From Fimbriimonadia bacterium (lineage in GTDB: Bacteria; Armatimonadota; Fimbriimonadia; Fimbriimonadales; Fimbriimonadaceae), in assembly GCA_030427425.1 (NCBI GenBank), contig JAUICQ010000001.1, forward strand, positions 172,665-236,664: DNA of 64,000 nucleotides, written 5' to 3'. Position numbers and translations under genes: made by a program. Below the pieces are notes generated by a model. The model was not told where the DNA came from. It made no database searches and saw only the letters and a list, made by a program, of their open reading frames with translations. Positions 57,305 through 61,784 of this stretch are shown piece after piece; the stretch's first letter is position 1; every line of letters starts with the position of its first letter.

Positions 57305-57775
57305 TTGCTAGCTAAATAATAGAGACCTGGATTCCCTTAAACAGGAACGACAACGCTCTGAGTCATCCTCGAAGGGGATCCACATCCTGCTAATTAGCTA
57401 ACCACCCATTATTGTCATTCCGGAACGGAATCCAGTAGTTTACTAAACATTTTAGGAGTTTTCATATAAGGTCATGGACCCCGGCTCCGTGACGATTTTT
57501 TGTGATATATAATGAAGGATGTACCCTGCAGTGGATCCCATTCTAGGATGACGACCGAGTGAGGAACTGAGTGATAGCTTTCGCCCCGCCTCTGATTTGT
57601 CATTGCTTTGCTAGGAGTCAGAATTATTCATTTTTTCAGATCGGCCGGATATTCCCCTTCGAGGATGACGACCGAGTGGGGAAATGATTGGCAAGTCCAG
57701 CCCCACATTTAAAATTTTAATCTGATTTGTCTTTCCGGCACGGAATCCGGTCTATTATAAATATTATTTTTTCTT
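57305..57775. repeat. Repeat cluster between degP and metK
   Basis: A 471-base gene-free stretch. It contains a truncated inverted copy of repeat A (57447-57490) and two copies of GGATGACGACCGAGTG (about 57547 and 57657). It also has two copies of the pattern TTCCGG(A/C)ACGGAATCC (about 57418-57433 and 57733-57748) and a TCATCCTCGAAGGGGATCC element near 57362. The pieces are in mixed orientation and look like a composite of short dispersed repeats. Confidence 0.75.
57447..57490 (-). repeat. Dispersed repeat A, copy 3 (inverted, truncated)
   Basis: ACATTTTAGGAGTTTTCATA, AGGTCATGGACCCCGGCTCC, then GT. This is the reverse complement of the distal half of the copy at 61594-61661, interrupted by three bases and ending abruptly at CTCCGT, where the other copies continue into the CTTCGAGGA block. 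Confidence 0.75.
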
Positions 57776-59928: not shown

Positions 59929-60759
59929 CTATCCTTTTATTCGTAATTTTGTTTTAATACTTACCTGTTTTTCATCGTCTATTAAATGCTTTGCTAAAAT
60001 ATCTTTCAAAACATTTATATCTTTAATGATGCTATGTTCCCCACTCTGAAAAAGAGATATTGTGCCTTTCTCTTCACTAACCACAATCGCTACGGCATCA
60101 CTCTGTTCAGAGATCCCCATCGCTGCTCTATGGCGCATATGGAACTTAGCTCCTAAATTATTACTTTCGCTAAGTGGAAGCGTACATCCTGCTGCCAATA
60201 CACGATTTCCGTCCAGTAATACCGCCCCATCATGTAGAGGATTCTCTCCATAGAAAATCGATCGCAGTAGATGATTGCTTACGGTCGCATTCAGTACGGT
60301 ACCTGTCGGGATGAGAAAATCGAGCTGATTCTTGTTTACTAGTACTATAATCGCACCAGTCTTACTCGCAGACATCTCGAGAACCGCTAATGCAATCTCG
60401 TCAATAGTCTGCTGGTTCGCGGATGTCTTTTTCTGTAAAAATCGCTGCGGCCACTGACCTATTTTATATAATTCTTCTAGGGTTGCCCGAAGCTCCGGCA
60501 AGAGAAGAATCACAATCGCAAATGGAGCGAACATCGTTGCCTTATCTAATAACCAGTGCAACGTGTTGAGTCCTAATTTGTCACTAAGCAGTAGCGCACA
60601 GACGAAGATAACCAATCCTCCTAAAATCCGCCAAGCTCTGGTCCCATGAATCAGTTTAAGAAGTCGGTAAATGATATACGTTACCAGTAAGATGTCTACC
60701 ATCTGCTTGGGATGGTAATTAAAATAAGTCTGATGAAAAATGTTCTGGATAAATTCCAT
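59929..60759 (-). CDS. cdaA: Diadenylate cyclase CdaA (DisA_N domain)
   Basis: A membrane-bound enzyme of 276 residues (from ATG 60759) that makes c-di-AMP from two ATP. Three membrane helices occupy about residues 20-90. The catalytic domain shows the DGA motif (LHDGAVLLDGNRVLAAGCTLPLS) and the RHR motif (FHMRHRAAMGISEQSDAVAIVVSEE). A longer form from GTG 60786 is possible. The extra nine codons are part of an inverted repeat, so ATG (MEFIQN) is preferred. The start codon is buried in the 21-bp stem described below. Confidence 0.92.
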   Translation of the reverse strand: MEFIQNIFHQTYFNYHPKQMVDILLVTYIIYRLLKLIHGTRAWRILGGLVIFVCALLLSDKLGLNTLHWLLDKATMFAPFAIVILLLPELRATLEELYKIGQWPQRFLQKKTSANQQTIDEIALAVLEMSASKTGAIIVLVNKNQLDFLIPTGTVLNATVSNHLLRSIFYGENPLHDGAVLLDGNRVLAAGCTLPLSESNNLGAKFHMRHRAAMGISEQSDAVAIVVSEEKGTISLFQSGEHSIIKDINVLKDILAKHLIDDEKQVSIKTKLRIKG

Positions 60760-60796
60760 AGCGTGTATCAAGTTTACTTGATACACGCTATGGAAT
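60753..60796 (-). promoter_or_regulatory. 21-bp perfect inverted repeat enclosing the cdaA start codon
   Basis: Two 21-base arms (60753-60773 and 60776-60796) are exactly complementary with only 2 bases between them. The inner sequence is GTGTATCAAGT on one side and ACTTGATACAC on the other. The cdaA ATG (60759-60757) is inside the stem, so the start codon would be fully paired in RNA. It follows the precursor-peptide gene by about 37 bases and could be that gene's terminator, a cdaA translation switch, or both. Confidence 0.7.
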
Positions 60797-60832: not shown

Positions 60833-61390
60833 TTAACCTTGAGCCATAAACATTGCATTTGGATTATTTAGGTTCGCAAATTCGTTCTGTTTAGCCATAT
60901 TATAACCTTGACCAATCATAGAAGCCATTTGGCCTGCACCCTGTCCTGCTAAAGCAATTTTCTGACCAGTATCTCCACCAACTATACCACCAGCAATCTG
61001 CCCACCTAATGCAGCAAAACCTCCAGCTAATTGAGAATAGAGCCCTACATTAGGATTGAAATTAAATGATTGAGTTGGTTTTGGACTTGGAGCTCTACCG
61101 CCTCTGCTGCGTCTACCACCGGCTACGCCAGCTAGGGCATCCTGACTAACTGCTTCTGCCTGCTGTGCTTGTGCTACTGCTGCTGGGTGATGTGGTAATA
61201 CAAACACTACTGTTTCAGGATCTGTCTGATCTACTACTTGTACGTTTAGTTCTCCAGGAAGTTCTACACCTAAGTATCTTTTAATAGCTCCTCTTGGATT
61301 TCTTGCGAATTCGTCTCTGCATGCTTCGTTATTCCATACACAATGTGCGATAGCTTCTTGTAATTGTTGTAATTGTTGTTCTAAGTTCAT
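60833..61390 (-). CDS. NHLP-leader RiPP-like precursor peptide with glycine-rich core
   Basis: A 185-residue protein. Residues 1-92 match the nitrile hydratase-derived (NHLP) leader class: a short helical start, AIAHCVWNNEACRDEFARNP, RYLGVELPGELNVQVVDQTD, PETVVFVLPHHP, then an Ala/Gln-rich linker and the double-glycine stop AGVAGG (residues 91-92). The putative core (93-185) is a basic SRGGRAPSPKP stretch followed by a Gly/Ala/Gln-rich hydrophobic region with several GG and GxxxG patterns and no cysteine. AGAGGTG gives a strong ribosome binding site. No peptidase-transporter or modifying enzyme is present in the window. It precedes cdaA on the same strand. The role of the core is unknown. Confidence 0.8.
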   Translation of the reverse strand: MNLEQQLQQLQEAIAHCVWNNEACRDEFARNPRGAIKRYLGVELPGELNVQVVDQTDPETVVFVLPHHPAAVAQAQQAEAVSQDALAGVAGGRRSRGGRAPSPKPTQSFNFNPNVGLYSQLAGGFAALGGQIAGGIVGGDTGQKIALAGQGAGQMASMIGQGYNMAKQNEFANLNNPNAMFMAQG

Positions 61391-61593
61391 TTTACACCTC
61401 TGTTGTAATAAATAACTTTTTCAAGTTTATTATTAATATTGGATCTTTATTTTTATTAAACATATGCACTATTGCTGTTTTTATGCATTTTGGTGTTTTT
61501 TTTAGGTTCTCTTTTTGGGCTGGTTCTCCTTCGAGGATGACAATATAGGGTGGGAGGATACCTTAATTGACCGCCACATCTAAACATTGCCTC

Positions 61594-61661
61594 GGAAAAC
61601 ATATAGTTCCCCTTCGAGGACGGAGCCGGGGTCCATGACCTTCTGAAAACTCCTAAAATGT
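61594..61661 (+). repeat. Dispersed repeat A, copy 2
   Basis: GGAAAACATATAGTTCCCCT, then TCGAGGACGGAGCCGGGGTC, CATGACCTTC and on to AAAATGT. It is the most complete copy and matches 1651-1712 at nearly every position of the shared block. The inverted relative lies at 57447-57490. Confidence 0.8.
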
Positions 61662-61784
61662 CCAGCAAGACAAGGAAAAATAATATTTATATTAGACTGG
61701 ATCTCCTTCGAAGATGACAAATCAGAGGGATGTGACTTCCAAGTGTGGGTGCAGAAACTAAGAATAAATTCCCAACTAATACCG

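What the first reader, a model, noticed from the sequence alone, without database searches (positions are those of the whole stretch)
60833..61390. Orphan NHLP-leader peptide with an unusually long, cysteine-free glycine-rich core
The leader and double-glycine cleavage site are clear, yet the predicted core is 93 residues, with a basic SRGGRAPSPKP start and a GG/GxxxG-rich hydrophobic part. Most NHLP substrates have short Cys- or Ser/Thr-rich cores and neighbouring LanM, radical-SAM or YcaO enzymes and PCAT transporters. None is in the window. It may be an unmodified membrane-active bacteriocin or a substrate served in trans, so it is a candidate for a new product type.
Basis: partly seen in the sequence, partly recalled or inferred. 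Interest (0 to 1): 0.75.

Follow-up and report, generated by a model that had tools for sequence, protein, structure and literature searches.

The report
Dispersed secreted-peptide precursors sharing one exporter
This gene is one of at least six scattered precursors in a small-genome Armatimonadota bacterium that share a conserved leader but carry unrelated tails, and that are probably cut and exported by a single distant transporter; the usual peptide-modifying enzymes that were searched for are absent, and the only candidate modifying enzyme is a methyltransferase beside that transporter.

Summary
Window 60833-61390 (-) encodes a 185-aa precursor: a 92-aa nitrile-hydratase-like (NHLP/proteusin-type) leader ending LAGVAGG and a 93-aa Cys-free Gly/Ala-rich core. 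The leader model's best PDB fold matches are the two solved proteusin precursors. It is orphan only in the window: the genome has five more GG-type NHLP genes and one complete NHLP export cassette (HlyD, C39-ABC, second ABC, all above NCBIfam cut-offs). In 46,199 aa of ORFs from this genome the C39 recognition motif occurs six times, once in each precursor. A sister species (Fimbriimonadia MAG Co_bin.364) has the same cassette in unrelated flanks and seven GG-type precursors. Between species, leaders align strongly while most cores, including this one, align no better than shuffles. No YcaO or LanC-like gene was found, and all seven radical-SAM hits are housekeeping. A FkbM methyltransferase beside the cassette in both species is the only tailoring candidate seen. 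Export in trans is well supported. The membrane-active bacteriocin reading is not: modest hydropathy, GxxxG not enriched, no confident structure, no immunity gene recognised. Verdict: a new variant of a known kind; product chemistry and activity unknown.

The parts
60833..61390 (-). NHLP-type precursor gene, 185 aa
   Evidence: ORF; TIGR03793 E=1.3e-12; NHase_alpha E=3.8e-6
61115..61390 (-). leader, residues 1-92; NHLP fold
   Evidence: AF2 model pLDDT 74-86 per ten-residue block over residues 1-50, lower after; top Foldseek hits are proteusin precursors 9cjx and 8tb1; 48-53% identical to two leaders of the sister species
61115..61150 (-). C39 recognition and cleavage segment VSQDALAGVAGG (V-12, L-7, V-4, GG at -2/-1)
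   Evidence: pattern occurs 6 times in 46,199 aa of ORFs from the loci searched, all in the six precursors; positions -4, -7, -12 are the LahT recognition residues (PMC6363468)
60833..61114 (-). predicted secreted core, 93 aa, Cys-free, Gly/Ala/Asn-rich, basic N-terminus (RRSRGGRAPSPKPTQ...), plus stop codon
   Evidence: sequence; composition; no Pfam match; weak PDB sequence matches only, best E=0.042; not alignable to any paralogue core
61395..61401 (-). putative Shine-Dalgarno AGAGGTG
   Evidence: sequence
60753..60796 (.). perfect 21-bp inverted repeat (2-nt loop) between the precursor and the next gene (cdaA-like); possible terminator or start-codon hairpin
   Evidence: no T-run beside it; its 16-base core is not seen in other loci fetched

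Best explanation
The gene encodes the precursor of a secreted ribosomal peptide. Its folded NHLP leader and VSQDALAGVAGG tail are recognised by the single NHLP-type exporter encoded on another contig (HlyD + C39-ABC + ABC, contig C4). The C39 domain cuts after GG, and the 93-aa core is passed out through HlyD and a TolC-like protein encoded elsewhere. The same exporter serves at least five other precursors with unrelated cores, so this is a multi-substrate system whose leaders are constrained and whose cores diversify fast. Maturation by the classical RiPP enzymes that were searched for (lanthionine, azole, radical SAM) is unlikely; the core leaves either unmodified or methylated by the FkbM-family methyltransferase encoded divergently beside the exporter. 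Shown computationally: gene, leader fold, cleavage motif, paralogues, exporter, leader/core split. Inferred: cleavage, export, methylation, and the role of the product, which I would guess is a diffusible mediator of bacterium-bacterium or bacterium-host interaction. The confidence given is for the precursor-and-export part, not for the role.
For: Exporter: TIGR03794, TIGR03796 and TIGR03797 all above curated cut-offs in one three-gene run, the genome's only PF03412 hit; a TolC-type OEP protein is present. Paralogues: six GG-type NHLPs. Cleavage motif: [VIL]x4Lx2[VI][AS][GA]G hits exactly the six precursors in 46,199 aa, matching the LahT recognition residues. Sister genome: same block, ABC1 57% and FkbM 62% identical, flanks unrelated. 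Leader pairs 37-68% identity, z 16-34; the window core against sister cores z -0.8 and -0.5, and three other pairs also at shuffle level. Decayed copies beside intact ones in the sister array show birth and death. Leader fold matches proteusin precursors. No YcaO or LanC-like gene; radical SAM proteins are MiaB, MtaB, HemW, LipA, MqnE/MqnC-type and RlmN. Only 2 of 85 family genomes have the C39 exporter above cut-off, the two that carry these precursors.
Against: The link between precursor and exporter is by motif, co-occurrence and fold, not by gene adjacency or experiment. The leader scores 3.6 bits under the TIGR03793 cut-off. Two pairs of cores (C4a/C4b, C8/C19c) do keep similarity, so core variability is not total. 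FkbM proteins in characterised clusters are mostly O-methyltransferases (PMC9259500), so the link to the peptides rests on adjacency in two species. Only named maturase families were searched; other tailoring enzymes were not looked for. The motif scan covered stretches around the loci, not the whole genome.
Confidence: 0.8

Rival explanations
1. Unmodified class II bacteriocin or microcin-like, membrane-active peptide: the Gly/Ala-rich segment forms a hydrophobic helix that inserts into target membranes after export.
For: GG leader plus C39 export is the class II logic; Cys-free, basic N-terminus, most hydrophobic stretch at residues 115-140, [GA]xxx[GA] enriched at p=0.013.
Against: Maximum 19-residue hydropathy 1.27; GxxxG not enriched (p=0.18); core pLDDT 31-39; no gene recognised as an immunity gene beside it, neighbours are cdaA-like and dinB-like ORFs (names from my reading of the translations); weak PDB matches only, no Pfam match.
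Confidence: 0.25
2. Proteusin-like methylated peptide: the FkbM methyltransferase beside the exporter methylates several of the dispersed cores (backbone N or side chain) before export.
For: Four-gene block FkbM | HlyD-ABC1-ABC2 conserved in both species in different flanks; EreM, an FkbM enzyme, N-methylates the backbone of an NHLP precursor (PMC9259500; PMC11285071).
Against: Most FkbM enzymes in characterised clusters are O-methyltransferases; none of the other exporter loci fetched has a clear homologue of this FkbM, one weak hit at 8e-5; best PDB match only E=0.0048.
Confidence: 0.3
3. The peptides are directed at a eukaryotic host or partner rather than at bacteria; the fast-evolving cores are interaction ligands.
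For: Small 1.5 Mb genomes against 1.7-6.5 Mb in the rest of the family, leucine-rich-repeat-like proteins beside the C7 gene and the sister array, no immunity gene recognised.
Against: No host is known for these genomes; both are draft assemblies, and only the sister has a name. Two literature searches found nothing on such a lineage. The LRR assignment is my reading of the translations.
Confidence: 0.3
4. The window gene is a decaying copy whose core is no longer selected.
For: Decayed copies exist in the sister array; the core aligns to none.
Against: Intact ORF with Shine-Dalgarno; leader well conserved; G+C of the gene (42.7%) close to neighbouring genes.
Confidence: 0.1

Closest known systems
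NHLP multi-substrate systems (Pelotomaculum, Azospirillum, Nostoc; Haft 2010, PMC2887384)
   Same: NHLP leader, GG site, hypervariable cores, TIGR03794/03796/03797 exporter, up to 12 precursors in one genome
   Different: No TOMM or LanM-type enzyme found here, precursors scattered and not beside the exporter, cores up to 93 aa, FkbM methyltransferase at the exporter
Proteusins, especially pythonamide (EreA/EreM, PMC9259500)
   Same: NHLP leader fold; FkbM methyltransferase in the system
   Different: No peptide-modifying radical SAM enzyme found; one exporter for many dispersed precursors; methylation not shown
Prochlorosins (Nif11 leaders, one promiscuous ProcM enzyme; PMC10783134 abstract)
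   Same: Shared leader type, many precursors served by common machinery, function unknown
   Different: Nif11 leader and lanthionine enzyme there; here NHLP leader and no LanC-like protein found
Class II bacteriocins and microcins (own knowledge)
   Same: Double-Gly leader, C39 ABC export, possibly unmodified Gly-rich product
   Different: Long folded NHLP leader; no immunity gene recognised next to the precursor

Membership tests
NHLP leader family (TIGR03793) | score at or above the curated cut-off of 50.9 bits | tested here: not met
   47.3 bits, E=1.3e-12: divergent, just below; I therefore call it NHLP-type, not a formal TIGR03793 member
NHLP leader family (TIGR03793) | leader fold of solved proteusin precursors | tested here: met
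   Foldseek ranks 1 and 2 are 9cjx (prob 1.00) and 8tb1 (prob 0.98), E 0.013 and 0.049; model mean pLDDT 66
NHLP leader family (TIGR03793) | double-Gly C39 site at leader end | tested here: met
   VSQDALAGVAGG; V-12, L-7, V-4
NHLP/NHLM export system | TIGR03794 + TIGR03796 + TIGR03797 in the same genome | tested here: met
   all above cut-off at C4
Lanthipeptide | LanC-like protein | tested here: not met
   no PF05147 hit at E<=0.001 in G000 or G001
Thiazole/oxazole-modified (TOMM) | YcaO | tested here: not met
   no PF02624 hit at E<=0.001 in G000 or G001
Radical-SAM proteusin | peptide-modifying radical SAM enzyme | tested here: not met
   the seven Radical_SAM hits of G000 are tRNA/rRNA, lipoyl, heme and menaquinone enzymes
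FkbM-methylated proteusin (EreM type) | FkbM methyltransferase linked to the NHLP system | tested here: met
   PF05050 protein divergent from HlyD in both species
FkbM-methylated proteusin (EreM type) | methylation of the core | not testable with these tools
   needs co-expression and mass spectrometry
Class II bacteriocin | adjacent immunity gene | tested here: inconclusive
   none recognised; neighbours read as cdaA-like, ybbR-like, metK and dinB-like ORFs (annotation by eye)
Class II bacteriocin | antibacterial activity | not testable with these tools
   needs a bench assay with the core peptide

The most novel reading that the evidence does not exclude
A 'minimal' proteusin-type system in which one exporter and one promiscuous FkbM methyltransferase handle at least six dispersed precursors with unrelated, fast-evolving cores of 20 to 93 aa, making methylated but otherwise unmodified peptides of a new type.
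Probability: 0.25. Interest if true: 0.7.

Novelty: new variant of a known kind. Interest (0 to 1): 0.5.

Why it matters
It shows a multi-precursor secreted-peptide system kept in a 1.5 Mb genome without the classical maturases that were searched for, with precursors far from their exporter, so cluster-based mining would miss it. Cores that differ completely between sister species behind matched leaders are a clean case for studying fast diversification, and the FkbM neighbour gives a directly testable enzyme-substrate set.

Tried and rejected
A visual similarity between the window core and the sister cores (GLYSQLAGG / GLYNMGLGLAG) was tested and rejected: local alignment p=0.54 and 0.77. A 'glycine zipper' was weakened by the GxxxG test. 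My first guess of the host from gene content (a Negativicutes relative) was wrong: the same-genus genome is titled a Fimbriimonadia MAG. A genome-contig scan with the precursor itself found nothing. No upstream motif shared by all precursor genes was seen; the best 9-mers are shared by 3 of 14 upstream regions. AF2 of the whole precursor was uninformative for the core. The whole genome was not available as a file, so searches were by family and by stretch.

Full report
Check of the observation. The minus-strand ORF 60833-61390 is 185 aa with an ATG and a Shine-Dalgarno. It matches the NHLP leader model at 1.3e-12, just under the curated cut-off, and the C-terminal part of nitrile hydratase alpha, profile positions 113-184 of 184. 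The leader ends at GG (residues 91-92) and leaves a 93-aa Cys-free core.

The genome. The window lies in G000, a 1.5 Mb draft in 19 contigs. The family model finds four NHLP leaders, and similarity searches add two more with a GG-type end, plus one relative without GG on C11. The only C39 domain is in a three-gene exporter on C4 whose members exceed the cut-offs of TIGR03794, TIGR03796 and TIGR03797. The same-genus genome G001 corresponds to Fimbriimonadia bacterium Co_bin.364: its contig C6 and JAUIKO010000001.1 are both 414,979 bases, and the FkbM search scored identically in both. G000 itself is unnamed. Among 85 genomes of the family only these two have the exporter above cut-off; a third has a weaker full-length match.

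Leaders against cores. Leaders of matched pairs are 37-68% identical with z from 16 to 34, while the window core scores z -0.8 and -0.5 against its two best relatives; three further pairs are at shuffle level, one is marginal (p=0.078), and two keep similarity (C4a/C4b, C8/C19c). Of the pairs, C15/C15 and C8/C19c also share a neighbouring gene; the others are matched by leader similarity only. All 13 GG-type leaders have L at -7, V or I at -4 and V, I or L at -12, the positions that LahT uses (PMC6363468). In 46,199 aa of ORFs from eight G000 stretches the motif is found six times, always in a precursor. This was not a whole-genome scan.

Tailoring. YcaO and LanC-like families are absent in both genomes at E<=0.001. 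The seven radical-SAM hits of G000 match MiaB, MtaB, HemW, lipoyl synthase, MqnE-type, MqnC and RlmN. A FkbM methyltransferase lies divergent to HlyD in both species, 62% identical, although the outer flanks differ. EreM shows that such an enzyme can N-methylate an NHLP precursor (PMC9259500). Here it is a candidate only.

The core. It has no Pfam match and only weak PDB matches, the best E=0.042 to a chain named MBH48, which I did not pursue. Its model has pLDDT 31-39, its hydropathy maximum is 1.27, and GxxxG is not enriched beyond composition. I therefore do not call it membrane-active. Neighbouring genes read as housekeeping, with no immunity gene recognised (by eye).

Known or new. Shared leaders with hypervariable cores, the exporter and multi-precursor genomes are known (PMC2887384); cyanobacterial double-glycine precursors of 28 to 164 aa with little core conservation are on record (PMC3140520). 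The dispersal, the missing classical maturases and the FkbM neighbour make this a new variant of that known kind.

Noticed in passing
window 60753-60796: Perfect 21-bp inverted repeat between the precursor stop and the cdaA-like start, without a T-run on either side.
   Followed up: partly
window 57362-57669 and 61525-61718: Short repeat TCNCCTTCGARGATGAC, five copies in the window where 0.05 are expected; looks like a dispersed intergenic element.
   Followed up: partly
L128 1471-1872 and L131 1363-1881: NHLP-related proteins without a GG site, with a similar C-terminal KIVDHD...YC..CW.LFKK tail in both species; perhaps a non-exported member.
   Followed up: partly
L008 5362-5979 and L130 1990-2616: A 205-208 aa protein with a signal-like N-terminus sits next to the C8-type precursor in both species, 30% identical.
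   Followed up: no
L026 9095-9643: The C4a precursor carries two copies of the cleavage motif (LNSVAGA, LNSVAGG) 15 residues apart.
   Followed up: no
L030 2970-6239, L026 2815-4023 and 14533-15972: Large leucine-rich-repeat-like proteins near precursor genes in both genomes.
   Followed up: no
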